From assembly GCA_031213475.1 (NCBI GenBank), contig JARUPZ010000034.1, positions 4,404,940 through 4,468,939 on the forward strand: a stretch of 64,000 nucleotides of DNA, in the 5' to 3' direction. The stretch comes from Nereocystis luetkeana (lineage: Eukaryota; Sar; Phaeophyceae; Laminariales; Laminariaceae). The number at the start of each line of letters is the position of its first letter. Position 1 is the first letter of the stretch. The notes below the pieces were generated by a model, which saw only the letters and a list, made by a program, of their open reading frames with translations, had not been told where the DNA came from and ran no database searches. Below are positions 22,434 through 44,652 of this stretch, one piece after another. The position numbers and the translations under genes were made by a program.

Positions 22434-22932
22434 TGTGATATGAATCGAGTGCTCATGGGCTATAGATATAGATAATATTGTCGGCAGTTTCGTAGCCCGA
22501 GGAATACGAGAATAATCCAAAGAATGGATTAACCCGGCGGATATTCCGGTAGTTGAGAGTAACCGTCTTTTAGGAATGTTCTCTAAGGCGGATAGGCCGT
22601 TAGACAAGAGTAATGTTCCTTAACGCAGATAGGATCGTAAAGTGAGAAGTTCTTATATTAGCAGAAGAACGTTCGGTAGCCAAAGGAAAGTTATTTAGGA
22701 GTACGTTAGATAAGAGGAATTTAGGAGAGCTTGTAGCGTGGGGTGGGACGAGTATATCTGAGCGTCGAGTCCCACCCCCCTACCTCTCACTTCTCTACCA
22801 GAGCACCTCCTCAGCTCTAGTCATCAATAAAGAAGATCTATATAAGAAGAAGCGAAGCACTGCTTCCCAGCTGCCAGAAACACCTGCGTCCCTTACCCTT
22901 ACCCTTACCCTTACCTCGGCCATATCTTCACA
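22434..22932 (+). repeat. 5' LTR
   Basis: 499 bases, ends TGTGATATGA and TATCTTCACA. It includes GATCTATATAAGAAG at about 22830-22844, a possible TATA-like core promoter, and about four CCCTTA units near the 3' edge (22890-22914). It also holds the sequence AATAAAG (22826-22832). Confidence 0.92.
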
Positions 22933-22934
22933 TC

Positions 22935-22952
22935 TGGCGTCGACGGCAGCAC
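22935..22952 (+). other. Candidate primer-binding site
   Basis: TGGCGTCGACGGCAGCAC begins two bases after the 5' LTR, where Ty3-type elements place an 18-base site that starts TGG and pairs with a tRNA 3' end. The tRNA is not identified. Confidence 0.5.
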
Positions 22953-25945
22953 ATCTGACGTCTTCGCATTCGACGAACCTTCTGGCCAAGCTGAGGACTG
23001 CAGCGCTTCTTCTAGATCTTCTCACGATCATGTGAGCCATCCCTACCCGGGAGGCAACTGGTTTTGAAGTCAACTTTTTATTTTGTTTCTTTTCGTTTCT
23101 TGTTTCGTTTTTTCTTTCGTTTTCCTCGCGGTCTATTTTCTTTCTTTCTTTTTTTTCTTTTCGAACCTGCGTTCCTGAGTGCGTTTTTAGTGCCGACGAC
23201 TGTGACAAGCTGCCTAGTGGCGACAGTAGACGTTTCTCCCCTCTTAGTATAGGTGAGTAGACGCATTCTTCCCCCCTTATCAGGCACACACGTACAAGTA
23301 CGTACAACTTCTCTCTGCTGTTTCTTAGTAGGTACTTGTCATATAAGTACTATTGTTGCTCTCGGCAGTGTGATGAGGTTTGTTTTTCCGCGCCCTGTAC
23401 CACGCCTCCGCCGTGGAATGACGAGATCGATCACCTCCACGATACGTGACACCATGTGGTTGAATGCACCTGGAGACCCCCCCCAAATGACATCGTGCTC
23501 ATCGCGCACAACAACGAAAGCGTTTTTTACAACAATGACCCCCTCCACTTCGATGTATGCCCGCCCTTTCATAGGGAAGGCACGTAAAGAGTAGGTGGAA
23601 CTGCTCACATTAACCCCCCCGCCATTTTATCTGCACCTTCCTGTATAGACAAGCGTTGTATGGGATTTGACCCTTACCACGACTACAAAGAAGCTGCTGT
23701 AGTACTGGTAGGACACCCGCAGCAGTATACTGATACGTGGAAATTTTTTTTTTAGGAACAGCGGTTGTGTGACTAAATACGCCATTCCTATTATATGCAT
23801 ATGTGAGCAGCCTACGAACGGCTCGGCTATAATTGCGAATTGTATCCATTGGTATCCATCGCGTGGGATATTCGCCTGCGAGTTATTGAACGACCATACC
23901 TGGTACCTGGTACCTGATACTACGTACCTGGTATGAATTAACCATACTGGCGACCCCCCCACAGCGAGAATAGCCATAAATGTACCTGGTATTTTATTTG
24001 AATGCCTTGGTTACAGGATTTCAACACATACCTGGTACATTGTAATATATGGTCCCCCGTAATAGTAGCCTACAAAGTCTGGTATACGAGCGAGGTACCA
24101 ATAGGGGTACGTAACACTATTTTAGTGACGAAATCTCCCGTGAACCCCCCCTTCCTTCCTCACGATATATTTAGGTAGACAAACGATGCACGGTCGGTGC
24201 CCCTTTCTTGATGTGATGGTCCTTTCCTTCCTCACGATATATTTAGGTAGACAAACGATGCACGGTCGGTGCCCCTTTCTTGATGTGATGGTGTAGCACA
24301 TCCACCGTATAGGAATGCATATATTTATACTCGTACGTAGGCGAACCTTACCTGGTTGCACGTATATACAATGCGAAGAACACACACGTACGGGTAGCGC
24401 TCTGGGAATACCAGGTATACCTGTCGACAATTCTTATATGGTTGCACGTAGCTCTTTAGGAATATATCTGCAGGAGGATTTTAAATGTTGCTCATTGGGA
24501 CCAGCTTATATTTCTGCACCCCTCTTCAGATTGCCCGTCCACACGCTGCTTCTACCATGCAGAACAGGCTCTATGAGGCACTACTTTCCTGCTGCTCTAC
24601 TATAAATACAGGACGCATGCTGCGGAAATTAATCGGATTTCTGCCATTTATGCCCCACCCCCACGGCCTATAGGATACAAACGATGTCTGTTATTTTTAG
24701 ATTTTTTTTTCTACTGCTCTTTACGTGCACGTTTGTTTTCCGGCATTCACGACTTAATGCGGCTTTATGTGGCCGAACCTTGTCCGTCTGCTGCCTAGGC
24801 GCATTTAAATTTGCCAGTTTTAAGCCAGAAATAAGGTATATATATGCTGCACAAATATGTCCGGCTACAGCCTCTTACGTGCACGTTCCTCAGCGTTACC
24901 GACGAAACGAGGCTTTGTGGCGCGCAACCTTGCCTACTGCTGTATACGTCTACCCCCCCCCCAGCTGTAGCACATCAAAACAGAATGTATGCTACCTGAT
25001 CTGGCCCGAATATTAGTTTGGTCGTGTTTGTTTTCCCTTTCTTTTTTGTTTTCGACGTGTGCCTTCCTTTTTTTTCTAATCGTTTCTTTTTGCTCCCACC
25101 TTAAATCAAAGCAGGGTAGACACTGTTCAAGTTTGTAACAAGTGTTATTTTCCAACGCACCCCACCCCCACCAGCTTTTACAAATAAAGCAGGGTACAGG
25201 CTGCCTAGAACCGTAACACCACAAAGGCTACACAAACTAGTAAACAACTGTTTCTCCCATGTTTGTCCAGCTCATCACGAAAACAGCTGCTGCAAGCTGC
25301 TCGAATATGGAGCATAGTAACTGTGGCCCGGGCAGTGACCATTTCCGAAAGTGATGAACTAAATGCTGGTCAAACTAACACCAATACACAACATCCTTCG
25401 CGGCGGATTAGCGTCTTCGACTCCCCCAAAGGAGCCAATTGATACTCTTTTCCATGTTTTTACGTACCGGGGTCTATTTCTTTTTTTTCTTTTTTTTTTT
25501 TTTGTTCCCACTTGCACCTCTACGACACCCTAAGTATCTCACAACGTATCGGGCCTCGCGACCCCCGAAATGTATCGGTTGCTGTCTGTTTCTACCACGG
25601 AACGAAAAACTGCCCACCGTTCAAGTAGGGAATCGCCCGATATTCTGTGCAGCTACCAAATAGTGCCGGCATGCTGCAATTTTCCCCCCGACTCGACCTA
25701 CACGTTGCCTTTACGGGTACTCTAATTGTATCCCAACGAAAGGTCTTGCACTGCCCACGCCCAGTAATCGTCACGCCCCGTTATCATTACGAACATTGGA
25801 CATTTCAGACGGAGTTCTGTTCAATTCAGTTCCACTGATATCACTTGAGTGACTCGGGCGCGACTACCGTCAATCACACGCGAGGCGCCTGAAACTAGCT
25901 AGACGTCCTCAACTATAAAAATATCCTTCGACGGGCACTATAATT
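22953..25945 (+). other. Long leader of the LTR element
   Basis: Three kilobases without a recognised domain. It holds a 72-base perfect tandem duplication (24154-24297), a solo MITE-A end (about 24047-24059), six TACCWGGTA motifs (23897-24417) and a minus-strand open frame (23339-23608) of balanced composition that I cannot assign. Leaders this long are known in some large gypsy elements. Confidence 0.6.
24154..24297 (+). repeat. 72-bp tandem duplication in the LTR leader
   Basis: Two consecutive copies beginning CCTTCCTCACGATATATTTA and containing ACGGTCGGTGCCCC; identical over about 68 bases by eye. Confidence 0.9.
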
Positions 25946-27703
25946 GTGGCACACCCCCCTCAATACCCCTTATTGTACGTCCTTACCGTCACTCCTTTCT
26001 GTCCCCTAGATCGGTTTGTTGGTATTGTAGCCGCCTACCCTGATCCAAGCCTGGATCCACCAGCCCTCTCCAACTTCCTCCACCGACATGCCCGGCGCCC
26101 CTTCCACCGACACCACCAACCCCCGCGAGGCGAGGTATGGAGAAGGCCCTCTCGCGCCACGGACGACGACACCCCCGGCTTCGATACCATTCTGAGTGAC
26201 CTCGCTCTACACCCCACCACACCGGGATCTTCTCCACTGGGAGCAGGCACGGCCAGTGCCGGGCCTACCATCAAACCGGAAGTCTCCGCACAGGAAACTT
26301 CCACCCCTGCTCTCAATCCGGGGCACTACCAAGGCGATCCCACGGCTCTCCGTGAGCGCCGCGCGGCCCTCAAAGCCCACCACGAGCAGCTCCTCCTTCT
26401 TGCGAAAGAGAGCGCTGACCTCCTACTCGTGTTACCGCCCTCTCCTACCCCTTCGACCACACCTACGAGACTGCAGCTGCGACCACGGCCACCACGGCCC
26501 AACCGCAGCCGTCGGCTCCGCACCCTGGACCACCCTTTCCGCCCGCCGCGATGTCTAGGACCACCACCTCCCAGCGCCCCCAGAACCAAGCTGGGACCAC
26601 AATGTCCCAGGCACCACTACCGGCCCAATCCTTGCCAGCCCCCAAACCCACTGGGCACCGGCAACCGCAGACGTTCGGCTTTGAGTCAAATGACTGGGTC
26701 TTTCTGGACGCCAAGCTCCGCTGGATGCAGAGTACACGCGACCCGATAGCCTCAGATGTCTCTATAGCGGCACACCGCGTCTGGCGACTGTTCACACCCG
26801 ACTGCGACCCGTCGATCACCTTCGTTCTGGCCCGCGCCGCCACCGAGGGTGCCTCGTCCGAGTTCATCGGGGCCGCCCACACCCTTTTACTCGAGCTAAG
26901 GTATTTCCACTCCAACGCCGGCCGCGGCTACGTGTGGAACCCGACCGAGTCTCGACCCACCCCTCCGACACCCCCAACCACCCGCCCCACAACGGATACG
27001 CCATCGCCGGCGACACCGCCCCTTCTCACCTCGACAACACCTCCCACGACGGCAGCGCCCCCCTCCACACGAGCGCTCAGCCTGATGACGAGAGCCTCTA
27101 CGGAGCCCGTGACGGAGGCGGAACGTCGCGGTGTCCCACGCCCAAGCCCTACGCGCTCACGGTGACCTTTGCCTCAACTGCAATGGCACGGACCATAGCC
27201 AGAAGACCTGCTCCAAGAGCTTCCTCACCACGTCCGGCATCTTAAACCCGGCACTCGGACAGCTAAACGACGACGGTCAGGCCTACCGCCAGTGGCAACA
27301 GAGGATGCTCTCTTACTGCCGGGGGCAATACGAGCGCAACCTGGAGCGGAGTTCCAACCGCTACGACAACAACCGTCGAGGCAACAACACCAACCGTAGC
27401 GGAAACTCCAACAACAGCCGCTCCAACTATAACCACTCCCGCAACTACCGCGGCGACAACGGGCGCTCCAACAACTGGCGCCATAGCAACGGCAGGAACT
27501 ACGACAACGGCAACCGACACTCGCCAGGGCAACAGTTCCGACAACAACGCATCGAGCCTGCCCCCTCGTCTTCCGCGTTGACGGTTCATACCCCTGCGAC
27601 CAACACGTCCGCACCAGCCGCCCCCGCAAACATGCGGATGGGCAGCAACAACTCGACCACCCACTCGAACCAACGGCAGCCGGGAACCTTCCGCACCAAC
27701 TGA
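25946..27703 (+). mobile_element. gag region of the LTR element
   Basis: Gag-type coding region with a Pro/Thr-rich start, a central part containing FESNDWVFLDAKL, and a C-terminal zinc knuckle of the CX2CX4HX4C form (CLNCNGTDHSQKTC, around 27170). This is followed by an Asn/Arg-rich nucleic-acid-binding tail (about 27330-27560). It lies over more than one overlapping frame. Role in the family: particle shell and RNA packaging. Confidence 0.75.
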
Positions 27704-28410
27704 CAAGCCGATGGTGGAGCACCTGCCGCATCTCCACCAACAGCATCTACTGCGACCACCCGAGGCTCTCAGGACGCACGCGTAAATCGCGTGCACCACG
27801 CCTCCCAGACCCCTGCCCCCGCATGCCCCCCCCCTACCCCAGCCCATTTCCCAGCCACTTGCTCAAGCACTGATCCTCTTGCTCAAGTGATTGCCTTGAG
27901 GTGTGGGCGGGAGGAGGCCAAGACGCCGAGCCTCACCAGGATGCTCCACTCGACGTCTTCCGGCGGTGAGCAACGCTACTTGCCGACCATTGCCGAGACC
28001 CCAGACATTGCTACCCTGGGAAACGTCTCGACGATTACGGCTACCAGCGGTTCCGGTTCACACGAAACTACCGTTTCGTCGACCGGGCCATCGCCCCCTG
28101 AGCCTGCCTCTAATTGGCCGCTCCATACGCGCTTGTTCCAGCATGCGCGCCTTTCTTGTGACAGCGTTGGACCCGCGAACGACGGGCTTCCACCCGCTGC
28201 CACGGTGTTGACACCACCGCTGCCCCTGAGCTCGAGGGGCAGTCCCGTATTAAAAACGGAAGACTCGCGACCAACGTCGACCAGGACATGCCCTGAGCCC
28301 CCTGCCCCGTCCTCCTCGCCTGCTTTGTGCAACGCGTGGACACGGGCCCCAGGTGTGGTATCTCCTAGCGAGTATCCCCCTGTCCTCCAAAAGTTGGACG
28401 ACAGGGCCCT

Positions 28411-28750
28411 TCAGGGTCGTCTCGCCCGGCGTATAAGCCCCGGCGTGGACCCCCCCGGTACCTCGGCTTTGCCGAGCAATTCCCCCGCGAACACGAGGGT
28501 TCTGATCAGCACCGCTAGATCGTGGCTGACTCTACCCCCGTCGACGCCAGGTGGCGATAGAAAAATTATCGTCAACACCTTTCAGGGTCGTCTCGCCCGG
28601 CGTATAAGCCCCGGCGTGGACCCCCCCGGTACCTCGGCTTTGCCGAGCAATTCCCCCGCGAACACGAGGGTTCCGGTCAGCACCGCTAGATCGTGGCTGA
28701 CTCTACCCCCGTCGACGCCAGGTGGCGATAGGAAAAATTATCGTCGCCCC
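28411..28750 (+). repeat. In-frame 57-codon tandem duplication in the polyprotein
   Basis: Two units with a 171-base period (starts 28411 and 28582), nearly identical, each encoding GRLARRISPGVDPPGTSALP and a following Ser/Pro-rich part. The unit lies between gag and the NADAR domain. High identity means a recent duplication. Confidence 0.92.
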
Positions 28751-28810
28751 CCACCCCCAACAACCAACACGCCATCAACAGCTCACACCACCGCAGAGGC
28801 CCCCTCATCC

Positions 28811-29272
28811 TTTCACTTGTTCTGGGACTCCTCTTCCGTCTTTTCGCAGTGGTACCTGTGCGACATCGAACACGATGGCGTCACATACAACTGCGCCGAG
28901 CAGATGATGATGGCGCAGAAGGCTGCGCTCTTCGGGGACACCACAACTGAGCGCCGCATCAAAGCGACCCGCGACCCGGCCGACCAAAAAGCACTTGGGC
29001 GCACCGTTTTCGGCTTCGACGAACTCGTTTGGGAGCGACACCGCTACAACATCGTCCTCAACATTAACTTCTCCAAGTTCCGCCAACACTCGGAGCTACG
29101 GCGAGAGCTGGCGGCAACGGACGACAAACACATTGCCGAGGCCAGCCCACACGACCTCATCTGGGGCATAGGCCTCAAGGCCGACCATCCGGACGCCTGC
29201 ATTCCGACGCGTTGGCGTGGTCGGAATCTGCTGGGCCGGGTACTGATGGACGTCCGAGAAAGCTTCGACGCC
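28811..29272 (+). mobile_element. NADAR (YbiA/DUF1768-like) domain inside the LTR polyprotein
   Basis: About 154 residues match the NADAR fold in order: an FSQWY block where the family has LSNFY, YNCAEQMMMAQKA (family: YPSVEHYYQAQKA), an AT..PADQKALGR block, W...R...V......KF.QH.ELR..L.AT, ASPHDLIWGIGL (family: ASPYDRIWGCGL) and WRGRNLLGRVLMDVRE. NADAR proteins are N-glycosidases acting on ADP-ribose-linked or related riboside substrates, and some reverse ADP-ribosylation of guanine. The domain sits between gag and the retropepsin in an open frame with good conservation of its core motifs. The role here is unknown; protection of element nucleic acid from host or rival ADP-ribosylation is only a hypothesis. 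The usual chromovirus plan has no such domain. Confidence 0.88.
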
Positions 29273-29589
29273 GATCGCCTCTCCCAACTTCCTACTGGTA
29301 CCAGTCCCAACGACCCAGAGCAAACACCCGCCTCCACCGACTCAACACGGGTCTTCCCCACCGCCGACGGCATCCACGAGACAAGCCCGACCCCCCCACG
29401 GCAACCGCCTAACTCCCCACTTGGGCTGCTTCTACCGCCGTCTACACCCGACGCCTACCCCATCAGCCACTTCGCCCAAGTGTCCACCATCAACACCGCA
29501 GCCCGCAGCCACCTTCCTACCCGTCGGCCGCCGATACCGGAACACGGACCATGCCTTACAGGCGGCATCATCACCGTCGACGACGCGTC

Positions 29590-29960
29590 GTTCACGACGA
29601 AGGTACTCGTGCACAGCGGCCCCGACGCCACTACCCGCCGCGAACTGGTGGCACTGCTCGATACCGGCTCGCCCCAGTCGTTTATCACCGCAACCGCGAT
29701 GGAACAACTGAAGGCCTCCCAGTCAGCCACCGACGCCTGCGAACGGCACAGTTCCCCCCGTTCATGGGGAGGCTTCGGCACCTCAGCCCCACTCTCCACC
29801 TCCGTCTCTATCCGCTTAAGCATCCAGTTTATGCGCCTCCAGACCCCCACCGCTGCCCTAGCAGTATGGGCCTGCGTAGTTCCTGCTGGAACCATGCAGC
29901 ACCCCATCCTCCTGGGACGAGACAGCTGGATGCGCTTCGAGCACCGCTCGTATACCACGC
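29590..29960 (+). mobile_element. Retropepsin (aspartic protease) of the LTR element
   Basis: The active-site motif LLDTGSPQSFIT is at about 29653-29688, preceded by a beta-strand-like VLVHSGPD segment. It ends with an ILLGRDSWMRF block typical of gypsy proteases (family: ILG.DFL). Confidence 0.85.
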
Positions 29961-30679
29961 TCCGGCAACAGCCCGCCCTCCCCCACCAACCTTCCCGGCA
30001 AACCCGTGGTGAGCTCTCTTTAAGTCACCACGACCCCAACGGAGCCTCAGCATTCATTCCCGACGATCGTTCCACTGACGACGTCTACCACCTCCGATTC
30101 GCCGGCAACAAAGCTATTTCGCTTTCCTCTACCCCACAGCTCGCCAAGGTCAACCTGGTGCGCCAGTCAGGCGCTCCAGCATTGGCCGGGAATTACATGG
30201 TGAACATGCTCCCCCGCGAGAACCCCCTTTCCGACACGGCGATTTTCGTCTCCGACGGGTACCAAACGGTCCCCCTATCTGGATCTGCCGAACTCGAGCC
30301 GGGTGACCTCCTCGGAACCTCCTGCTCCCCACTGGTACAGGTACCGCTCGCCTCCCTTGGGCATCCCTCCTTAAACCCGCCGCTCCCCCCTCCATTTCCG
30401 GACGTACATGCCCTCCACAACAACATCCCGGTGGCCGACCAGAGTCCACCAACAGCCGACCCCTCTACCGCACTAAAAGCCCCGTGCCCACAGCTCCTTG
30501 CACGCCTCGACGCCGACCAGCGCAAAAGCTTCCTCGATCTCTGGGAACGCCTGCCGTTGCACCTACGCGACGTCAACTTCGACCTTCACGGTTCTGGATG
30601 GACCCCATCGGTGATCAACAACTTGGGCGACGTCCTCTGCGAATTCCAGGACGTCTTCTCCACGTCGAAGACCGACTTC

Positions 30680-32000
30680 GGCTCGTGCTCGCTAATGCCG
30701 TTCAAGATCACGGTACCTCCGGACAGCGCACCGGTCACTTCCCGCCCCTACAGGATCAACCCCATCCTCGCCAAAAAGGCCGACGCCGTATTGGACCAGT
30801 ACCTGGCTGCCGGCCTGATCCAGCATTCCACGTCGCCATACTCCAGCCCTATGGTCGCCATCCCCAAGAAAGACGGAGGTGTTCGCATCACAATCAACTA
30901 CAAGAAGCTCAACGCCATCAGCTCCCTCGGACAACTCCCCATCCCCCGCGTCGACGAAGTCCTCGACTCCTTGGGTAAAGGTCGCATCTTTTCCCTCTTC
31001 GACCTGGTCTCCTCGTTCCACCAAATCACCATCGACGAGGACACCATCCCCTTGACAGCGTTCTGCACACCGAACCGGTTATTTGAGTGGCTTGTTATGC
31101 CACAAGGCAGCAGCGCCTCCCCCGGCTGGTTCGTTAAGGTCATCAACGAGGTCATCAAAGGCCTGGAACGCGTCGCCGCGTATCTCGACGACATCATCGT
31201 CTTCGACCCCAACCCCAACGACCATGTTGCCAACATCAGAGCTCTCTTCGGACGCCTCCGGAAGCACCACATCAACCTTTCCCCGGCCAAGGCCAAACTT
31301 GGTGCCACCACCGCCGATTTCCTGGGACACACCATCTCCGCCGGCGGTTACAGCCCCAACTCCGACAAGGTCGCCGCCCTCACCAGAATGCCCATGCCGA
31401 CCGACAAGAAGCAAGTGCGCTCGCTCCTTGGGGGCATCAACTACTACGGCAAGTTCCTGCCGAATCTCTCCCGACGTCTGCGCCCCATCAACGCTTTACT
31501 CAAGCAAGGCGCCACGTTCGACTTCACCCCCGCCATGGAAACCACCGTCCGCGCCATCCTCCAAGAACTTGCCGAACCGCCTATCCTCGTCTACCCCGAC
31601 TGGGACGCCGTTGCCGACAACTCCCGCCCCTTCCGCCTCTACTGCGACGCTAGCATCGACGACTTCGGCGCGACCCTTGAGCAAGAACAACCCGACGGCT
31701 CAGTCCGACCCATCCTTTTCATCAGCCGTGCCACCCTGGACTCCGAACGTTCGTGGACACCCCTCGACCTCGAGGCCGGGAGCATCGTGTGGGCGATCAA
31801 ACGCCTCCGTGGACATTTATGGTCCACCCGCTTCCAGATCTACTCGGACGACAAGGCGCTCGAGAACATCGCCAAGGTCGGAGAACACAACGCCCGCGTC
31901 CGGCGCTGGCTCGAGTTCCTTTCGGCGTACACCTACACGCTGGAATACCGGAAGGGCACGTCCAACGGCAACGCCGACTTCCTCTCCCGGCTCCCCCAAC
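30680..32000 (+). mobile_element. Reverse transcriptase and RNase H of the LTR element
   Basis: RT shows PYRINP, SPYSSPMVAIPKKDGGVRI, FSLFDLVSSFHQI, a palm MPQGSSASP and the catalytic YLDDIIVF (31181). RNase H (about 31630-32000) shows YCDASIDDFGATL, LEAGSIVWAI, YSDDKALENI and GNADFLSRLP. All are standard Ty3/gypsy motifs. Confidence 0.95.
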
Positions 32001-33049
32001 CCGCCACCGACGCCGACCGCACCGGACGCAACCGCCTTACCGGCCCGGACACCGTCGGCATCTACCTCATCCGCCCCTGCGGCTTCGCGCCGAACGACCC
32101 TCCCGCCCCGGGTATCGGCTTGGGTGGGCTCGTATCCCCCCCTCCAAGGCCCATCCCAACCATCCAGCCGCTTCCCTTCACCACCGACGATTTCCGCGAC
32201 TTCCGCCTACTGGGACCACGTATGGAGCACCCCACCCTTTCCCCCGCACCCGACACCTTCGTCGGGCCCATTGCGACCCCTGACTCCACCGCCGGACTGC
32301 TTGTTGGCCCCGAGAACGCCGCCGTGAACAGCGGAGCTCCTCCAGGCTGGGCTTCCAGGCCGTCCGTCATCTCTCCGCCGTCCACCACTGGCGGCACGGA
32401 ACCAGCCGTTTCAGGCCTGATATCTTCTCGGACCCGCCATCGCATCGCCGCTGCCGCGGGAACCCCTCGACCCGCAGCCGACTATCGCTTCGGCCGTCGA
32501 CCACAACCCGTCGTACGCAGACGATCTACACCCACCAGTGCGCCCACGCCCCCGGCCGGGGTCCAGCCAAGACCCCCTCCTCCTACGGCGCCTTCAGCCA
32601 CAGCTCCCGCGCCGCCCGACCCGTTTGCGCCCGCAAACCCAACCCCAACCCCCCCAACAACGCCTTCTCCGCCGGCACCAGCACCACCGTCGCTGCCCCT
32701 CCCGGAGCCCATCGTCGAACCAGATGACGACCCCTACCTCCTCGCCCGCGTCGAGCACTACACCTTTAAAGACTGGGCGCGAGAACAACGAGCAGAGCCC
32801 CTGTGCTGCGCCACCATCCGCTTCCTGTCGTTGGACTCCCCTGCCCCCCCCGCCGAACGACCTCCTGGATTTCATCCCCTCGGCCCGGCGCCCACAACTT
32901 CCGGACGTCCTCACCCTTGCCTCCAAAAGCAAGCTGCACCGTACGGACGACGAAACCACCCTCCTGGTCCAACGACCACCCCCACCCCCACCCGGGAACA
33001 GCCTACCACCACCCGCCCCCCTTACCCCACGCATCTACGTGCCAATGTT

Positions 33050-33620
33050 AATGCGCCCCTGGGTGCTGAACACCTGCCACGCCACCACCTCTCTACACCT
33101 AGGAGTCACCCGAACGGTCCGCATGCTGGCACGTTTCTTTTGGTGGATTGGCATGGACGCTTCCGCCCGCTGGTGGATCCGCCGCTGCCTTCAATGCCAG
33201 GCGCGGAAAACCTCCCGGCACACCATTCGCTGGCCCATCCTTTCTCTTCCTTTGCCCAACGGGCCTGGCATCACCGTCAGCGTCGACTACTTCGGACCCC
33301 TGCCGCTCACGCCGCGCGGCAACGTCCACATCCTTCTCTTCACAGACCGCTTCAGCCGGCGCGCCGATATGTTTGCCGTTTCAGCGGCGCAGTTCACGGC
33401 CGCCGGCACCGCCGACATCTTCCTGAACGAATACATCCCTCTCTGGGGGTGCCCGGTTACGCTTCTCTCCGACAACGGACTACACTTTACCTCCAAGCTT
33501 GCAAACATCGTCTACGAGCGCCTTGGTATCCGCAAGGTCAACACCAGCTCCTACCACCCCTGCACCAACGGCGGCGTCGAGCGCGTCAACCATGTGTTGG
33601 CCCAAATGCTCTCTATGGTC
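33050..33620 (+). mobile_element. Integrase of the LTR element
   Basis: An HHCC zinc-binding region with CHATTSLHLGVTRT and CLQCQARK lies at about 33070-33215. The catalytic core has VDYFGPLPL (first Asp), LLSDNGLHFTS (second Asp) and NGGVERVNHVL (Glu). It is followed by a C-terminal SH3-like part ending near GPFKVLAVGP (34050). Confidence 0.93.
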
Positions 33621-34349
33621 GGCAACGAACAGCAGACCGACTGGGACGTGCTGCTGCCACACGTGTCGTCGGCCTACAACAACTCCGTGAACGCCGCTAC
33701 AGGGCTTGCGCCTAACGAAATCCACATGGGCCGCCTTCCTCGCCTCCCGCTCTCGGTCTTCGAACCCGACAACATCGGCGGCCACCAAAGCTTGGACCGC
33801 GATCATCTTGTCTACATCAACCTCGCCACCGACCGACAACGACGCGCGTACTCCCTCATCCGCGAACTACACCGACTCACCGTCTCGCGTCTCCAGCGCC
33901 GCAACGCGCCCATCATGGCCGCCCTCCGAGCATCCCCCCCCTTCACCGTCGGCGGCTGGGTTTGGGTCTACAACTCCGCCTCAACCATTCGCCAAGGCGT
34001 CAAAAAGGGCACCGACGCAACTGTACTCAAGACAAAGCTTTCCCTGAACTGGAATGGGCCCTTCAAGGTCCTCGCCGTTGGACCGACGCCCGCCTCCGCC
34101 TCGAACACCCCCGACAACCGCCCTCTTCACGACAAGCTACTTTTCCTCGACCTTCCATCCGACCTTCCGGGACGGGACTCCAAGCCACGCGTCTCCGTTC
34201 AACGATGCAAACCTTGCCGGAACCCCGACGACACCAGCGACATCCCCAAGCATCTGCCCGCGGACCTCACTACATACGTACTCACAGCTTCTGCCGCCAA
34301 GTCCCCACCTTACCACGTCACCGTCGACGACGTCACTCCCCCACCGGAA

Positions 34350-34900
34350 CGCCTCGAGGTCGAGCAGATCACCGGCCATCAACTCGTACGCGGCAGCGGC
34401 GGGGTCATCGCCGTTCTGTACGAGACCCACTGGGCTGGACTTCTCAGTCCCTCTTGGGAACGCGAGCTGGACCTTCAACACTTCCGGCGCAACATCCTAC
34501 TCTATTGGTCTGGAGCGCCGACACAACACCGCCAGACGAACCGCCTCTACCGCCAGATGCGCATCGGCGCTGCCCACCGCGAACTGGCACGATCCCAAGG
34601 ACAAATATTTCTCGCCCCCGGCTACGCCCTGGTCTCCCGCAGCCTCTGGCTCCACAACTTCAGCACCACCATCCTCCCCTCTGGAGCGCACATATGGTAC
34701 AAAGCGCGCGACGGCCTCTGGTGGCTGGGCAAGATCGCTCACCGCTCACTCCCGGACGTCTCTTCGGGTGCTCCACCGGAACCTTCACCAGGCGGCTCCT
34801 ACATCATCCGGTTCTTGGATGACCCCGGACCGATCAAGATCGACCTTCAACCCGCCCGCTACACTACAGCACGGAACGCCGTGTACGGATCGTGGTGTCT
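34350..34900 (+). mobile_element. Chromodomain-like and Tudor-like C-terminus of the integrase
   Basis: The first segment (34350-34515) has LEVEQITGHQL, VLYETHWAG, PSWERELDL and ILLYW, the order expected of a chromodomain that can steer integration to marked chromatin. The second (34680-34900) has HIWYKARDGLWWLGKI, YIIRFLDDPGPIKI and GSWCLQ, resembling a Tudor/SH3-like barrel. The first call is fairly firm, the second is by pattern only. Confidence 0.65.
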
Positions 34901-34997
34901 TCAACGCCATGGGAATGGGAGCCTAGCACGTGGGCTGCTGCGGAACTCTGATGTGTCCCGCGGAGCCCCCACGGTTTCCACTCCCCCCCCTGGATAG

Positions 34998-36395
34998 CCT
35001 TGGTTTAGCATTTTTTTTTAGTTCTGGGTACTTGTTTCTGGTTAGTCAACAATGTATTAAAGTAGTTCTTCAGGGTTAGTCTTCAATAGCCACCAACAGC
35101 CAGCTTCTTGGGTGCATATATTTCCGTCTACCTTTTGTTTTCTTCATACCGCCTACACCTCCGTGTTGCCTTCTTACGTTCAGGCCACCGAGTCGTAGCG
35201 ATACCATAATTTTCATATTTGTTTGTACTTCACTAGCCTACCGCAAATTATTGGCAATACTACGCCGAGGTAAAATCGTGTCGTAGCCTGGGCTGTACCC
35301 TAGCCTCCGTCGGTTTCCACCGACCCCTGTTTCAGACGGTCATCGAGCTAAGATTTTATCGAGCTTCCAGCTCGCCCGTGTTTCTTCTATCTTTGCCAAG
35401 TAGGGTCCGGATAGCATTGCCGCCCCGGAAGGCCGCAGAGTTATCAACCATGGCGGTTCTACCAAGATCGATTTTCCCTGACTCGTGTTCCGTTTTCAGT
35501 TAGTTTCCTGGTCCCGATCGTGGTTTGTTTTCTTTTTCTTAGGTTTCTTCATATTTCGTTCGGTATTCCGCGCGCCCCTCTGCTCTGTGGCAAACGACAC
35601 CATCTTTGATGTCGCCCCTGTTGGCCGAGTTGCACACGCTAGTGTTTTAGCCCTGCGCTATATACCATCTTGAACTGCACGCATTAGGCCAATCTTCTTG
35701 CGGATCTTCTTGAGTTTTTCTTGTTGAGTAAAATACCTTGCTACGTTTGCTGGTATAGTTCATACCACGAAGAGGCCTCCCAGACGCCGCGTTGTTCGCT
35801 CCGTCTCCCGGTTTTAATAACCCCTAGTGTACGCAGCCCCCTTTGCACTTTCGCAGTGCCCCGTTTCTCTTGAGTGATGTCTACCACGTTAGGACCTCCG
35901 CCACAAGACAAGGCATTACTCCTACCAAATATATATGTGTTTTTTTTTTGTATTGCGGTCACTGCCTCCTTCGTGAGTTTCCTAGTTTGCCAACCCGGTT
36001 CGGCGACCAACCTCCGTTCGCACCTTTTTGTGCGCCCTTCTTTCGCCTTCACTTCGGTACTAGTTTTCTTCTTCAGCCTTCGCTTCGGCTTTTGTTCTGT
36101 CTCCTGTTTTCTTTCTTCTTTCTTCGGTTTTCGCTTTGCCTTTCTCTGCTTTCGCTTCCGCTTTGAGTTATTTCTTCCTCTCCTTCGGTCTCTACCTTTA
36201 AGTGGTTGTTCTAAGTAAACACCCCTTCGCAGTGTTTGGGTCTTATGACGAGGTGTGGGGGGATCTATAGCCTCATTTCTTTTGTTTCGAATAGCCGCAT
36301 CTTCGACCACCTTTTCCTGGTCTTTTGGGATGAACTTTGTCATCATCCTTCGACCATCTTGTGGTCTGCATATACGACTATTCAGGGTGGGCTAA
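34998..36395. other. Tail of the LTR element between pol and the 3' LTR
   Basis: 1.4 kb with no recognised domain. The stretch 35940-36200 is pyrimidine-rich on the plus strand, so the minus strand reads as a 201-codon Lys/Arg-rich open frame (35741-36346); some large gypsy elements carry extra antisense genes here, but composition alone may explain it. A short purine-rich run CAGGGTGGG (36383-36391) just before the 3' LTR is a candidate polypurine tract. Confidence 0.5.
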
Positions 36396-36894
36396 TGTGA
36401 TATGAATCGAGTGCTCATGGGCTATAGATATAGATAATATTGTCGGCAGTTTCGTAGCCCGAGGAATACGAGAATAATCCAAAGAATGGATTAACCCGGC
36501 GGATATTCCGGTAGTTGAGAGTAACCGTCTTTTAGGAATGTTCTCTAAGGCGGATAGGCCGTTAGACAAGAGTAATGTTCCTTAACGCAGATAGGATCGT
36601 AAAGTGAGAAGTTCTTATATTAGCAGAAGAACGTTCGGTAGCCAAAGGAAAGTTATTTAGGAGTACGTTAGATAAGAGGAATTTAGGAGAGCTTGTAGCG
36701 TGGGGTGGGACGAGTATATCTGAGCGTCGAGTCCCACCCCCCTACCTCTCACTTCTCTACCAGAGCACCTCCTCAGCTCTAGTCATCAATAAAGAAGATC
36801 TATATAAGAAGAAGCGAAGCACTGCTTCCCAGCTGCCAGAAACACCTGCGTCCCTTACCCTTACCCTTACCCTTACCTCGGCCATATCTTCACA
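36396..36894 (+). repeat. 3' LTR
   Basis: 499 bases; no difference from the 5' LTR was found by eye. Confidence 0.92.
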
Positions 36895-37677: not shown

Positions 37678-38188
37678 CCGTAATCATGCGAAGGTTCGCA
37701 CCGGGTGCGATCGCGTTTTTAAATGGTTCTACGTTGTGTTTTTTATCGCACCCCGGCGCTATCTCTCCGATGCGTGCGTTCTCCCCGATGGGGGTGCGGA
37801 AACACAATTGAATCATGTCGTTCTTCCATTTTGGCGCACCCCCGGTGCGATCTCTCCGATGGGTGTGATACCGAGTACCACAACAGCTGGGTAGGTACCC
37901 ACCCTGTTGCAGATGTAGGGCACAGTAAACACAGCAGTTAACACACACCTTACATCAGCCAAAACGGTGTGCCGGCGAATTGAGAATCGATCCGGCAAAA
38001 TACGGTATAAACCTTTGTAAGCACCGGCCGCACCGACAGGAAGAACAGAGCCGGTCCCATAGCGTAGAGTCTTTTGTTGCACCCCACGAGAGTATTCGAG
38101 CTATTAATAGCAATACCCCGAAAAACGCGGCGGAATTCCGCTGAGATGCACACAAACCCACGGCATCCAGACCACCCCCTGCAGCATC

Positions 38189-41100
38189 ATGTCAGAGGGT
38201 GCAGGCGCCGAGGCTGCCTCTTCACAGGTCAATGAGAGTGCTGCTGCTGCTCCTGCTGCGGCTGCGGACCCTTTGGCAGTAGGAGAGGCAACCGACGAGA
38301 TGCTGGCAGCAAATGATGGCCACCGACAACCCTACAACAAACGCAAGTACCCGGAGCCTGGCTTCGCAGTCGAAAGGTCTGGTTCAAAAGGAGGGAGAGG
38401 GAGCTACACCAACGGCTTCAAACTGAAGGCGGCGGCATTCACGAGGGTCCGCTGCGCGGACGGCAACCCGGTGGGAAACGGCGGAGCGGCGAAAGTTCTC
38501 GGTGTAGCTAAAAAGCGCGTGATCGAGTGGGTGCAGCAGGAGGAAAAACTCAAGGTCATGATCGACTCCGCGCCCAAGCTCTCGCGTGCCAAGTCGCTAA
38601 ACGTTGGGGTTGCAGCTTCGACCGCCGATGTTGACCAAGCCCTGGAGGACTACATCAATGATCAGCGTAAACAGCACCGCGGCTGTGGAAGCGCGGAGGT
38701 CATGAGCAAGCTGCTGGCACTCAAGCCTGATGCCCTCGGGGGTCTTCCCGCCCGCCCTACGCCGAAGGAGGCAGAGGAGTTCAGGGCGAAGTTCAACAGC
38801 TGGTACCAGCGTTTCCGCAAGCGCCGCGGGTTTACCGGTAGTATCCGCCGGCGTACGAGCGTGGGACAGAAGCTGCCCACAGGACACGAGGGCATGGCGT
38901 GGGCGACGGTGATGAAGCTTCGGAAGGCTCTCCTGAAGCGCGCTGGTGAGATTTACGAGAAGTGCAACCCATCCCCGCCCGGCGAGAGCCCCATCAAAGG
39001 GGAGGACCTGACTTCCGAGCAGCTAGAGTCGGTGGCCGAGCAAGTTTTCGAAGAACTCGGCAACATGGACCAGACGCCCGTCCAGCACGAGATGCCGGTC
39101 GAGACGACTCTGGAGAAGCGTGGCACCAAGGATGCTCGCATCAGCACCGGAGGTACGAGTCTTTTACTGCTGCTCTGTATTTTTTGTGTACTCGGCATCA
39201 TTTTATATTTTAGTCTACTGCTGTTTATTTTTTGTGTAAAGTACTCGGCAGCATTTTATATTTTACCGTAATCATGCGGAGGTTCGCACCGATCGGAAGG
39301 TTGGCACCCATCGGAAAGATAGCGCCGGGGTGCGATAAAAACACAAAGTAGAAACATTTAATCGTGTTTTCGCACCCCCATCGGAGAGATCGCACGCGGT
39401 GGGTGCGATCTCTCCGACATAAATAGAAATTTGAGGGCCACCGCAGCGGGTCTGTGGTAGGTAATATTCTCATTTCTTTCATACTCCGATGAGATATCAC
39501 CCGTGCGCCACTCCTCTCAAACGTACTTTACCAACGCATGGTAGGTCAAGTCGTTTTAGGTAGCTTTGAGTCATTTAATTTGTATGCTCTCAACCAAGCA
39601 CACAGCACACATCATCCGGTACATGCTGCCTACCGGTACACATCACAAATCACAGCACCAGCTCGTGGTACGATATTACAATACCTTGTGCAACCGAGGC
39701 AGACAGGAACGACAGAGGAAATCGAGAGCTTCAACTTAAAGCGAACAGCAGACAGACCCATACGATAGTGTACGTGACATTTCAACAAAAACAACCCTCC
39801 GGAGCATCGTTCTCCGTCCTATTGCAACACGCCACAAGCAAACTCGCTTCGGCCCCACAACAAACCCCAACGCCATGTTGATTCGCACCAGACTCCGATA
39901 CCCTTGTGCATTCCAGCCAGCGACAACGGTACCTACGGTCAAGGCACAAAACACCTGTATTGTACTGATCTCCGGCATTTTCAAGTACCGGTTTTGTAGC
40001 GATGTTTCACAGCTCAATCTCTTCCTCTACTTCCCCCCCCCACCACCCAAGAACTCCACATCGCTGTCATCTTCCAGCTGCTCCACATCGCTGTCGTCGT
40101 CCGTGGTGGGTAGCAGCTTCGCGTCCACCTCCTTCTGTGCGGCCGCGATGGGGTTGGTGCCGACCGCCGCGCCCTCTGGTACCACTGGCAGTTGGAGCGG
40201 GGGCAGGGTGACGTCGGGGTGCTGTGCCTCCCACTCGACGCGCTGCTGCTGGAGGAGCTCGGGGTAGCCTTCGCCGAAGTTGTGCGAGCACCAGGCGTGG
40301 TCCTCGCTGCCATCGAGAGCAAGCGTGAGCCCGCAGATCTTGAAGCAAGTCTTGACCAGCTCCGGAGTGATCTGTGCCCACGCCTGCTTGCACCACGTCG
40401 ACACCTGCCCACGTCCCGGCGGCTTCAGCTTGCCCGTCCTGGTGTCGGCGACCGCTGCGGCGGTGTGGGCGGTGTACATCCCCCGCAGCAGCCGCTTCAT
40501 CTGCTTGTTGAGCATGCGGTCCAGCGGCTGGAGCAGAGGAGTCAAACCGCCCGGGATCAGGATGACGATGGTGTTGCCTCTCTTCAGGAGGTCGGCGATG
40601 AAACCCTCGTCTCTGTGGAACTTGAAGTCGCCCAAGACCAAGATGCTTGGGCGCTGCTTGATGATGCTGCCGTTGTTGGGGCGCAGCTTCCAGCTCTCCG
40701 TGAGCCACAGGGTGCACTCCCGCGCGTCGCACCAGCTCTTATCCTGCACTCCAAACGACATGCCGCCGGCGGGGTGCCCGTTGCGGGTTCGGTTCGCGGG
40801 GGCAATCTCTGCCGCGATGGACCCCTTCCGCGGCTGAGTGCTCCTGCCCTTCCCCGACTTGGTCGGCGGGATGAACGGGGTGCCCTTGAAGATGATGCGC
40901 AGTGGAACCTTGCCGCCGTCTGCCATGACAGCAAGACAGAGCGTGAAGCGCTCCTTTTCCTTGCCTGCGAGGGAATCAGTACAAATCGGGGGATAGAGGG
41001 ACGTTCAGTTCATCTTTCACCGTCGTGTTTTTTTATGTGGATGAGAAAGAGACCAAACACCGACAAACAACAGCATTAAAAAAAATTAAACAGCAGCAGA

Positions 41101-43889
41101 CCAAAATGTAAAATGATGCCGAGTACACAAAACATAAACAGCAGTAGACTAAAATAGAAAATGATGCCGAGTTCACAAAAAATATACTGCAGTAGAGTAA
41201 AATAGAAATGATGCCGAGTATTTTACACAAAAAATAAACAGCAGTAGACTTGAATATAAAATGATGCCGAGTACACAAAAAATATAGAGCAGCAGTAAAA
41301 GACTCGTACCTCCGGTGCTGATGCGAGCATCCTTGGTGCCACGCTTCTCCAGAGTCGTCTCGACCGGCATCTCGTGCTGGACGGGCGTCTGGTCCATGTT
41401 GCCGAGTTCTTCGAAAACTTGCTCGGCCACCGACTCTAGCTGCTCGGAAGTCAGGTCCTCCCCTTTGATGGGGCTCTCGCCGGGCGGGGATGGGTTGCAC
41501 TTCTCGTAAATCTCACCAGCGCGCTTCAGGAGAGCCTTCCGAAGCTTCATCACCGTCGCCCACGCCATGCCCTCGTGTCCTGTGGGCAGCTTCTGTCCAA
41601 CGCTGGTACGCCGGCGGATACTACCGGTAAAAACCCGCGGCGCTTGCGGAAACGCTGGTACCAGCTGTTGAACTTCGCCCTGAACTCCTCTGCCTCCTTC
41701 GGCGTAGGGCGGGCGGGAAGACCCCCGAGGGCATCAGGCTTGAGTGCCAGCAGCTTGTTCATGACCTCCGCGCTTCCACAGCCGCGGTGCTGTTTACGCT
41801 GATCATTGATGTAGTCCTCCAGGGCTTGGTCAACATCGGCGGTCGAAGCTGCAACCCCAACGTTTAGCGACTTGGCACGCGAGAGCTTGGGCGCGGAGTC
41901 GATCATGACCTTGAGTTTTTCCTCCTGCTGCACCCACTCGATCACGCGCTTTTTAGCTACACCGAGAACTTTCGTCGCTCCGCCGTTTCCCACCGGGTTG
42001 CCGTCCGCGCAGCGGACCCTCGTGAATGCCGCCGCCTTCAGTTTGAAGCCGTTGGTGTAGCTCCCTCTCCCTCCTTTTGAACCAGACCTTTCGACTGCGA
42101 AGCCAGGCTCCGGGTACTCGCGTTTGTTGTAGGGTTGTCGGTGGCCATCATTTGCTGCCAGCATCTCGTCGGTGGCCTCTCCTACTGCCAAAGGGTCCGC
42201 AGCCGCAGCAGGAGCAGCAGCAGCACTCTCATTGACCTGTGAAGAGGCAGCCTCGGCGCCTGCACCCTCTGACATGATGCTGCAGGGGGTCTTGATGCCG
42301 TGGGTTTGTGTGGATGCTGTGCATCTCAGCGGAATTCCGCCGCGTTTTTCGGGGTATTGTGCCGTATTATACCGTATTTTGCCGGATCGATTCTCAATTC
42401 GCCGGCACACCGTTTTGGGTGGTATAAGGTGTGTGTTAACTGCTGTGTTTACTGTGCCCTACATCTGCAACAGGGTGGGTACCTACCCAGCTGTTGTGGT
42501 ACTCGGTATCGCACCCATCGGAGAGATCGCGCCGGAGTGCATGTACGCAGCACCGTTGCCCCAGTACGGCCCGGTGTATTTCGATTCAGCAGCGCACCCA
42601 TCGGAGAGATCGCGCCGGGGGGGCGCCAAAATAGAAGAACGGCATGATTCAATTGTGTTTCCGCACCCCCATCAGAGAGATAGCACCGGGGTGCGATAAA
42701 AAACACAACGTAGAACCATTTAAAAACGCGATCGCACCCGGTGCGAACCTCCGCATGATTCCGGTAGTCTACTGCTGTTTATGTTTTGTGTACTCGGCAT
42801 CATTTTACATTTTGGTCTGCTGCTGTTTAATTTTTTTTAATGCTGTTGTTTGTCGGTGTTTGGTCTCTCTCTCATCCACATAAAAAAACACGATGGTGAA
42901 AGATGAACTGAACGTCCCTCTATCCCCCGATTTGTACTGATTCCCTCGCAGGCAAGGAAAAGGAGCGCTTCACGCTCTGTCTTGCTGTCATGGCAGACGG
43001 CGGCAAGGTTCCACTGCGCATCATCTTCAAGGGCACCCCGTTCATCCCGCCGACCAAGTCGGGGAAGGGCAGGAGCACTCAGCCGCGGAAGGGGTCCATC
43101 GCGGCAGAGATTGCCCCCGCGAACCGAACCCGCAACGGGCACCCCGCCGGCGGCATGTCGTTTGGAGTGCAGGATAAGAGCTGGTGCGACGCGCGGGAGT
43201 GCACCCTGTGGCTCACGGAGAGCTGGAAGCTGCGCCCCAACAACGGCAGCATCATCAAGCAGCGCCCAAGCATCTTGGTCTTGGGCGACTTCAAGTTCCA
43301 CAGAGACGAGGGTTTCATCGCCGACCTCCTGAAGAGAGGCAACACCATCGTCATCCTGATCCCGGGCGGTTTGACTCCTCTGCTCCAGCCGCTGGACCGC
43401 ATGCTCAACAAGCAGATGAAGCGGCTGCTGCGGGGGATGTACACCGCCCACACCGCCGCAGCGGTCGCCGACACCAGGACGGGCAAGCTGAAGCCGCCGG
43501 GACGTGGGCAGGTGTCGACGTGGTGCAAGCAGGCGTGGGCACAGATCACTCCGGAGCTGGTCAAGACTTGCTTCAAGATCTGCGGGCTCACGCTTGCTCT
43601 CGATGGCAGCGAGGACCACGCCTGGTGCTCGCATAACTTCGGCGAAGGCTACCCCGAGCTCCTCCAGCAGCAGCGCGTCGAGTGGGAGGCACAGCACCCC
43701 GACGTCACCCTGCCCCCGCTCCAACTGCCAGTGGTACCAGAGGGCGCGGCGGTCGGCACCAACCCCATCGCGGCCGCACAGAAGGAGGTGGACGCGAAGC
43801 TGCTACCCACCACGGACGACGACAGCGATGTGGAGCAGCTGGAAGATGACAGCGATGTGGAGTTCTTGGGTGGTGGGGGGGGGAAGTAG
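38189..43889 (+). CDS. Pogo-like transposase (outer copy), two exons
   Basis: Exon 1 is 38189-39152 and exon 2 is 42952-43889. GT (39153) and AG (42950-42951) give a phase-1 junction and 633 codons plus stop. Around residues 90-125 is a helix-turn-helix (AKVLGVAKKRVIEWVQQEEK); residues 150-220 resemble a CENP-B/Tc5-type second DNA-binding domain. The DDE/DDD core has D294 (NMDQTP), D434 (LVLGDFKFH) and D470 (LTPLLQPLD), with 35 residues between the last two; the TxxLQPLD motif is typical of pogo/Tigger/Jerky transposases. An Asp/Glu-rich tail ends the protein. It cuts and pastes DNA at TA sites. The intron is now 3.8 kb because another whole copy lies in it; without that it would be about 0.3 kb. 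Both exons look undamaged, so if the long intron is spliced the protein could still be made. Confidence 0.9.
39266..42764 (-). mobile_element. Inner pogo-like transposon, inserted in the intron of the outer copy
   Basis: 3499 bases in reverse orientation. TIRs are CCGTAATCATGCGGAGG at 39266 and CCGGAATCATGCGGAGG read from 42764, flanked by TA at 39264-39265 and 42765-42766. It is near-identical to the outer element; the exon 2 products are identical over 299 residues. Its arms pair with the arms of the outer copy, making the whole 37.7-44.65 kb a long palindrome. Confidence 0.93.
40027..42275 (-). pseudogene. Pogo-like transposase (inner copy), frameshifted in exon 1
   Basis: Exon 1 is 42275-41310 and exon 2 is 40964-40027, with a 345-base GT-AG intron. 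The sequence is nearly the same as the outer transposase, but exon 1 is two bases longer: a T-run (A-run at 41629-41633 on the plus strand) has five instead of three, which shifts the frame near residue 215, before the catalytic core. The core exon is undamaged. The TIRs are intact, so the copy could still move with transposase from elsewhere (inference). Confidence 0.88.
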
Positions 43890-44652
43890 AGGAAGAGATT
43901 GAGCTGTGAAACATCGCTACAAAACCGGTACTTGAAAATGCCGGAGATCAGTACAATACAGGTGTTTTGTGCCTTGACCGTAGGTACCGTTGTCGCTGGC
44001 TGGAATGCACAAGGGTATCGGAGTCTGGTGCGAATCAACATGGCGTTGGGGTTTGTTGTGGGGCCGAAGCGAGTTTGCTTGCGGCGTGTTGCAATAGGAC
44101 GGAGAACGATGCTCCGGAGGGTTGTTTTTGTTGAAATGTCACGTACACTATCGTATGGGTCTGTCTGCTGTTCGCTTTAAGTTGAAGCTCTCGATTTCCT
44201 CTGTCGTTCCTGTCTGCCTCGGTTGCACAAGGTATTGTAATATCGTACCACGAGCTGGTGCTGTGATTTGTGATGTGTACCGGTAGGCAGCATGTACCGG
44301 ATGATGTGTGCTGTGTGCTTGGTTGAGAGCATACAAATTAAATGACTCAAAGCTACCTAAAACGACTTGACCTACCATGCGTTGGTAAAGTACGTTTGAG
44401 AGGAGTGGCGCACGGGTGATATCTCATCGGAGTATGAAAGAAATGAGAATATTACCTACCACAGACCCGCTGCGGTGGCCCTCAAATTTCTATTTATGTC
44501 GGAGAGATCGCACCCACCGCGTGCGATCTCTCCGATGAGGGTGCGAAAACACGATTAAATGTTTCTACTTTGTGTTTTTATCGCACCCCGGCGCTATCTC
44601 TCCGATGGGTGCCAACCTTCCGACCGATGCGAACCTTCGCATGATTACGGTA

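What the first reader, a model, noticed from the sequence alone, without database searches (positions are those of the whole stretch)
28811..29272. A NADAR (YbiA-like) domain captured in a Ty3/gypsy retrotransposon polyprotein
Sequence shows a complete-looking NADAR domain between gag and the retropepsin, with the core blocks AEQMMMAQKA, SPHDLIWGIGL and WRGRNLLGRVLM retained. The element is young (LTRs look identical), so the domain was in a lineage active until recently. Known: NADAR enzymes are N-glycosidases linked to NAD and ADP-ribose metabolism, and some undo ADP-ribosylation of guanine. Inference: the element may use it to clear ADP-ribose marks from its RNA or cDNA, or to blunt a NAD-based host defence. 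The standard gag-pol plan has no such domain, and I know of no named family with it here.
Basis: partly seen in the sequence, partly recalled or inferred. Interest (0 to 1): 0.88.

Follow-up and report, generated by a model that had tools for sequence, protein, structure and literature searches.

The report
Retrotransposon with built-in ADP-ribose eraser
A young Ty3/gypsy retrotransposon in what is likely a brown alga encodes, just ahead of its protease, a complete NADAR enzyme domain that keeps every tested ADP-ribose-contact residue and would likely strip ADP-ribose marks from the element's own RNA or DNA; the same kind of fusion was already reported from Ectocarpus in 2025.

Summary
A full-length NADAR domain (Pfam PF08719, E 8.4e-47) lies between gag and the protease of a 14.46-kb Ty3/gypsy element with identical 499-bp LTRs. 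[quoted passage not shown]

The host here is a different genome: 465 Mb, and likely a brown alga by its many EsV-1-7 motifs. Of 95 scored RT places in it, 92 have NADAR within 4 kb upstream on the same strand; the other 3 are deletions or truncations. At least four element families carry NADAR. Rows group alike by RT and by NADAR, and synonymous distances match RT for the closest pair, so the domain was co-inherited there.

Best mechanism, inferred: an active guanine-ADP-ribose hydrolase, likely acting inside particles. Against it: 17 of 100 close copies have an in-domain stop, and 10 share one that has spread.

The parts
22434..22932 (+). 5' LTR, 499 bp, TGTGA...TCACA
   Evidence: identical to the 3' LTR; AT-repeat flanks make the target-site duplication ambiguous
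22935..22948 (+). candidate primer-binding site (TGGCGTCGACGGCA)
   Evidence: sequence directly after the 5' LTR; the rule is recalled, no tRNA partner tested
26551..27703 (+). gag region, split between two frames in this copy, ending in TGA
   Evidence: no Pfam match for these pieces over cut-off
27170..27211 (+). gag zinc knuckle C-X2-C-X4-H-X4-C
   Evidence: sequence shows CLNCNGTDHSQKTC in frame; motif rule recalled
28407..28745 (+). tandem pair of a 168-bp unit in the Pol linker before NADAR; 1 to 3 units in other copies
28805..29278 (+). NADAR domain (YbiA type), 158 residues, with E32 K39 R66 W76 R80 E112 D117 W120
29540..29989 (+). aspartic protease region, DTGS at 29660-29671
   Evidence: sequence; weak Asp_protease_2 match E 0.0074, below cut-off; 48-74% identical in copies of the other families where it matched
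30860..31336 (+). reverse transcriptase (RVT_1), YLDD at 31181-31192
   Evidence: E 9.7e-27
31616..31930 (+). RNase H domain of RT (RT_RNaseH)
   Evidence: E 1.2e-25
33039..33560 (+). integrase: H2C2 zinc-binding domain and rve core, in a different frame from RT in this copy
   Evidence: H2C2 7.5e-16; rve 7.7e-7, below its cut-off
33732..34994 (+). C-terminal part of Pol; no Pfam chromodomain match
36384..36395 (+). candidate polypurine tract (AGGGTGGGCTAA) just before the 3' LTR
   Evidence: rule recalled
36396..36894 (+). 3' LTR, 499 bp, identical to the 5' LTR

Best explanation
This is a NADAR domain carried in the Pol polyprotein of a Ty3/gypsy lineage, kept by purifying selection, and it likely works as a guanine-ADP-ribose hydrolase that would clean ADP-ribose from the element's RNA template or cDNA. 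Shown here: the domain's identity and position, its fold match (model against solved NADARs), the conserved ADP-ribose contacts, co-inheritance with RT, and purifying selection. Inferred: it is catalytically active; the protease next to it releases it or leaves it joined inside the particle, beside the genomic RNA and RT; its substrate is guanine-linked ADP-ribose, which would otherwise block reverse transcription or mark the nucleic acid; and the host or a co-infecting agent makes such marks.
Against: No activity, substrate or expression was measured. 17 of 100 near-full-length F1 places have a stop in the domain. Of the 16 fetched, 10 share TAG at codon 7, in two haplotype groups of 5, so stop-bearing copies have multiplied; a few small contigs, such as C884 beside C28, may be second copies of one place. 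This stop also blocks the rest of Pol, so it speaks for help in trans or read-through rather than against NADAR alone. One of these groups also has G65K, at a position invariant in alignments A1 and A3. NADAR is the fastest-evolving of the enzyme domains compared (F1-F2 omega 0.41 against 0.09-0.16), which also fits relaxed constraint. Within families dN/dS is 0.34-0.62. Active-site losses occur in single copies. Whether the host makes ADP-ribosylguanine is unknown; searches for PARP (PF00644) and a second family (PF14487, meant as an ADP-ribosyltransferase; accession recalled) did not complete.
Confidence: 0.5

Rival explanations
1. The domain acts in trans on host molecules: free ADP-ribose or NAD-derived signals, or ADP-ribosylated host proteins, and so dampens a NAD-based host response.
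For: Proposed for phage NADARs, which are thought to target mainly small ADP-ribose derivatives (PMC9503650 passages). Fast evolution with a fixed active site fits a moving target.
Against: A polyprotein position keeps it near the element's own nucleic acid. The same review argues that NADARs embedded in polyproteins of eukaryotic RNA viruses mainly target macromolecular ADP-ribosylation. Tested NADARs act on guanine-ADP-ribose.
Confidence: 0.2
2. A binding or structural module that recognises RNA or ADP-ribose without needing catalysis.
For: Weaker constraint than PR, RT and INT.
Against: The YbiA-class glutamate E112 and also E32 and K39 are kept in 46, 46 and 48 of 48 loci, and all are shared by representatives of four families at about 50% identity.
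Confidence: 0.1
3. A housekeeping N-glycosidase of riboflavin-pathway intermediates, as the NCBI family name says, with no link to ADP-ribose.
For: TIGR02464 'riboflavin biosynthesis intermediates N-glycosidase' matches at 152.3 bits, well over its cut-off of 73.7.
Against: No reason for a retrotransposon Pol to keep it. YbiA-type proteins tested hydrolyse guanosine-ADP-ribose (PMC11125620 passages; E. coli YbiA on RNA, PMC11833690 passages).
Confidence: 0.07
4. A captured passenger with no function now; copies move with help from others.
For: Stops in 17 of 100 close copies, one stop spread to 10; singleton N:S 49:20, near neutral; pN/pS intervals overlap those of the linkers.
Against: pN/pS below 1 between families, with a conserved active site. 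NADAR matches over its length in all families, whereas both linkers give no match in F3. 92 of 95 RT places keep it.
Confidence: 0.08
5. Origin rival: NADAR was taken up more than once by this Gypsy lineage, F3 independently of F1, F2 and F4.
For: Careful tree of 69 rows needs 3 changes and puts F3 with two viral contigs (97/80); 0% of 200 bootstrap trees have one clade. F3 is 58% identical to a Nannocystis NADAR but about 51% to F1.
Against: The AU test does not reject one clade (p 0.232). The quick tree of 154 rows gives one clade (SH-aLRT 74). Only about 150 columns.
Confidence: 0.3

Closest known systems
NADAR-bearing Gypsy lineage of Ectocarpus (Gypsy-12_Ec32 and relatives; PMC12477816)
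   Same: YbiA-type NADAR at the N-terminal region of a Gypsy Pol, conserved through the families of one lineage. LTR elements there reach 14.5 kb; this one is 14.46 kb.
   Different: This host genome is 465 Mb in 1987 contigs, not the 200-Mb Ec32. No Ectocarpus element sequence was on hand, so RT kinship is untested. No Pfam chromodomain match here, where that paper reports putative ones.
NADAR of Phytophthora nicotianae (8bau) and E. coli YbiA (2b3w)
   Same: Fold and, for 8bau, the ADP-ribose contacts with the YbiA-class glutamate.
   Different: Those are stand-alone proteins, 33% and 29% identical over the aligned parts.
NADAR domains in polyproteins of nidoviruses and other RNA viruses (PMC9503650)
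   Same: NADAR embedded in a replication polyprotein; fold matches include yellow head virus and Wenling nido-like replicases.
   Different: Positive-strand RNA viruses without reverse transcription; 20-26% identical in the named rows.
Tx1 LINE ORF1 NADARs of the Pacific oyster (in PMC12477816)
   Same: A retrotransposon carrying a YbiA-family NADAR.
   Different: Non-LTR element, ORF1, divergent; not examined here.

Membership tests
NADAR (YbiA type) | Profile match over the full domain | tested here: met
   PF08719 159.9 bits, positions 2-161 of 163
NADAR (YbiA type) | NADAR fold | tested here: met
NADAR (YbiA type) | Catalytic E and K, ADP-ribose contacts, YbiA-class glutamate rather than aspartate or histidine | tested here: met
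   E32, K39, R66, W76, R80, E112, D117, W120 align with E43, K50, R79, W89, R93, E125, D130, W133
NADAR (YbiA type) | Hydrolysis of guanine-linked ADP-ribose | not testable with these tools
   needs a biochemical assay
Ty3/gypsy LTR retrotransposon | Two LTRs | tested here: met
   499 bp, identical
Ty3/gypsy LTR retrotransposon | Order PR-RT-RH-INT | tested here: met
   PR only weakly by profile; INT in another frame in this copy
Ty3/gypsy LTR retrotransposon | Target-site duplication | tested here: inconclusive
   both flanks are AT repeats
[quoted passage not shown]
Ectocarpus NADAR-Gypsy lineage (Gypsy-12_Ec32 type) | C-terminal chromodomain | tested here: inconclusive
   no Pfam chromodomain in 34200-34994; not folded or compared further
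Ectocarpus NADAR-Gypsy lineage (Gypsy-12_Ec32 type) | RT groups with that lineage | not testable with these tools
   its sequences and supplements were not available
Brown algal host | Expanded EsV-1-7 motif family | tested here: met
   150 of 150 scored places over cut-off, 1704 first-look candidates, 0 of 14 control genomes. One marker only; it is also known from giant viruses

The most novel reading that the evidence does not exclude
Brown algae fight retroelements by ADP-ribosylating guanines of their RNA or cDNA, and one Gypsy lineage has carried its own guanine-ADP-ribose eraser in its particles ever since, evolving it faster than any of its other enzyme domains. That would make NADAR-Gypsy a marker of an undescribed nucleic-acid ADP-ribosylation defence in a multicellular eukaryote.
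Probability: 0.2. Interest if true: 0.88.

Novelty: new member of a known kind. Interest (0 to 1): 0.5.

Why it matters
The fusion itself is in print for Ectocarpus. What is added here is a test of whether the domain is kept for use. In a second, larger genome that is likely a brown alga, four element families carry it with RT, it is under purifying selection, and its active site is conserved while the rest diverges to about 50% identity. That makes a simple assay worth doing, and it raises the question of what puts ADP-ribose on retroelement nucleic acid in these algae. The role of eukaryotic NADARs is described as unclear in PMC11125620 (passage).

Tried and rejected
Chance or artefact: rejected by profile, fold and copy number. 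NADAR found in this one copy only: rejected (150 of 150 scored places match, 783 first-look candidates; 100 near-full-length places at 94-100%).

NADAR-free sister elements: none among the 95 scored RT places (of 2179 first-look candidates); 3 lack NADAR through internal deletion or truncation. More distant RT members were not scored.

Viral-contig origin of the whole element: scans of viral contigs with the NADAR protein and with the RT protein found no relatives. Scans with NADAR alignments did find NADARs, but none of the 170 loci held matched the element's RT or INT by tblastn; the 80 loci were not tested for that.

Literature: NADAR, 3,020 papers hold the word; 40 listed, many of them author names; NADAR + retrotransposon, 104; 30 listed; YbiA + retrotransposon, 1; NADAR domain + Gypsy, 1; RNA ADP-ribosylation + retrotransposon, 2; NADAR + brown alga, 80; 10 listed; NADAR + transposable element, 7. 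Only PMC12477816 was seen to report NADAR in retrotransposons. The library lacks most subscription papers and bioRxiv, so older mentions are not excluded.

Full report
What is there. The window holds a 14,461-bp LTR retrotransposon at 22434-36894. Its LTRs (22434-22932, 36396-36894; TGTGA...TCACA) are identical over 499 bp. ORF 27791-33715 carries, in order, a NADAR domain, a DTGS protease, RT and RNase H. The integrase follows in another frame. So this copy is young but has a broken pol, and its gag is split between frames. Ten of the 100 closest places in the genome lie in frames of 2424-2428 aa without a stop in NADAR or RT, so intact Pol frames exist.

Host. The window lies in a 465-Mb assembly of 1987 contigs, so it is not Ectocarpus Ec32 (200.2 Mb; PMC12477816). 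A search with EsV-1-7 (PF19114, accession recalled, name confirmed by the output) scored 150 of 150 places over cut-off, with 1704 first-look candidates and none in 14 control genomes. PMC12477816 says this motif has proliferated in brown algae and is otherwise mostly known from giant viruses (passage). A brown alga is therefore likely; the species is unknown.

Copies and families. The NADAR query matched all 150 scored places (783 candidates). One hundred are near full length at 94-100% identity (family F1). I fetched 20 of the other 50 with 10 kb each. All 20 carry parts of this Gypsy Pol: 19 by RT or INT and L195 by protease and pre-RT. By sequence they are 3 older F1 copies and 17 members of three further families: F2 (4), F3 (8) and F4 (5). 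In reverse, 92 of 95 scored RT places (2179 candidates) have NADAR within 4 kb upstream on the same strand, 66 of them at exactly 1866 bp; 86 of the 92 distances were printed and lie between 1644 and 2032 bp. Of the other 3, two have internal deletions and one is truncated, each without NADAR. NADAR is thus a constant part of this lineage as far as it was scored.

Co-inheritance and selection. An RT tree of 15 rows (the window as the only F1 row) gives F2, F3 and F4 as clades with 99-100% support and joins F1 with F2 (81/81); the same rows fall into the same sets by NADAR identity. For F1 against F2, synonymous divergence is the same in NADAR (0.87, 0.93) and RT (0.88), so the domain was not swapped since they split. 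NADAR pN/pS is 0.55 [0.41-0.73] and 0.56 [0.42-0.74] there; the linkers on either side are at 0.68-0.72 with overlapping intervals, PR 0.28, RT 0.16-0.17. For F3 and F4 dS is near saturation and only pN/pS is safe (0.44-0.46; the second linker against F4 is 0.52). In F3 neither linker gives a match while NADAR matches over its length. Within F1 (28 loci, 27 places: 8 best plus 20 that I picked over the identity range), singleton changes show N:S 49:20 against a site ratio of 3.39, evenly over codon positions, while shared changes show 10:7 and favour third positions; 5 multi-change codons were left out. This is what selection during replication and neutral decay after insertion would give. Within families dN/dS is 0.34-0.62 for NADAR and 0.33-0.47 for RT. 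Four family representatives share 52 of 158 positions, including all eight contacts.

Against. Seventeen of the 100 close places have an in-domain stop. Of the 16 fetched, 10 share TAG at codon 7 on two haplotypes and one has TGA at that codon; two share a stop at codon 14, one has it at codon 16, one at 100 and one at 125. Several of these copies keep the rest of Pol open and have RT 99-100% identical to the window's. Stop-bearing copies have therefore spread, by help in trans or by translation past the stop; some small contigs may repeat a place. NADAR is also the least constrained of the enzyme domains compared. For comparison, 10 of 95 RT places have a stop within 446 codons.

Origin. NADARs of phages, plasmids, bacteria and viral contigs in the listed rows are 41-58% identical to Gypsy NADARs. 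In a quick tree (140 external rows kept of 250 after removing near-duplicates at 70%; 2 of 252 dropped as too short) the 14 Gypsy NADARs are one clade with SH-aLRT 74. In a careful tree with 55 of those 140 rows they need 3 changes, with F3 apart. The AU test does not reject one clade (p 0.232). One capture or more cannot be told apart here.

Mechanism. NADARs reverse guanosine ADP-ribosylation in DNA and RNA (PMC11543638, PMC11125620, PMC11833690; passages). Inside Pol, NADAR would be packaged with RT and the RNA template. The most likely role is to remove ADP-ribose from guanines of the template or cDNA. PMC12477816 itself suggests processing of RNA intermediates. Activity, packaging and the source of the marks are inferred.

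Known or new. The fusion is published for Ectocarpus (PMC12477816: section 5 part 1 of 2 read, other passages). This element is a new member of that kind in another host. The selection, active-site and co-inheritance results were not seen in the parts of that paper I read.

Noticed in passing
window 28407-28745; L172, L178, L197: A 168-bp tandem unit in Pol just before NADAR occurs once (L178, L197), twice or three times (L172) in the 11 copies compared.
   Followed up: partly
G000 contig C1: 50 of the 100 near-full-length F1 NADAR places lie on contig C1, 21.9 of 465 Mb. A repeat-rich region such as a sex-determining region would fit; not tested.
   Followed up: no
L301-L310, L315: Ten close copies share TAG at NADAR codon 7 on two haplotypes and an eleventh has TGA at the same codon, while the rest of Pol stays open in several.
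   Followed up: partly
window 27701-27703; F1 and F3 copies: Gag and Pol are in one frame, separated by TGA 368 codons before NADAR in the window and several F1 copies and 352 codons before it in several F3 copies: a candidate for stop-codon read-through.
   Followed up: partly
window 38111-44652: A 6.5-kb near-palindrome (main arms 97.6-99.5% identical) with a DDE_1 endonuclease frame at 40030-41004 on the - strand, E 3.5e-14: a nested or inverted DNA transposon.
   Followed up: partly
L184, L188 (F3 family): F3 NADAR is 58% identical to a Nannocystis NADAR and 56-57% to that of Pseudomonas phage ZQG1, closer than to the other Gypsy families at about 50%.
   Followed up: partly
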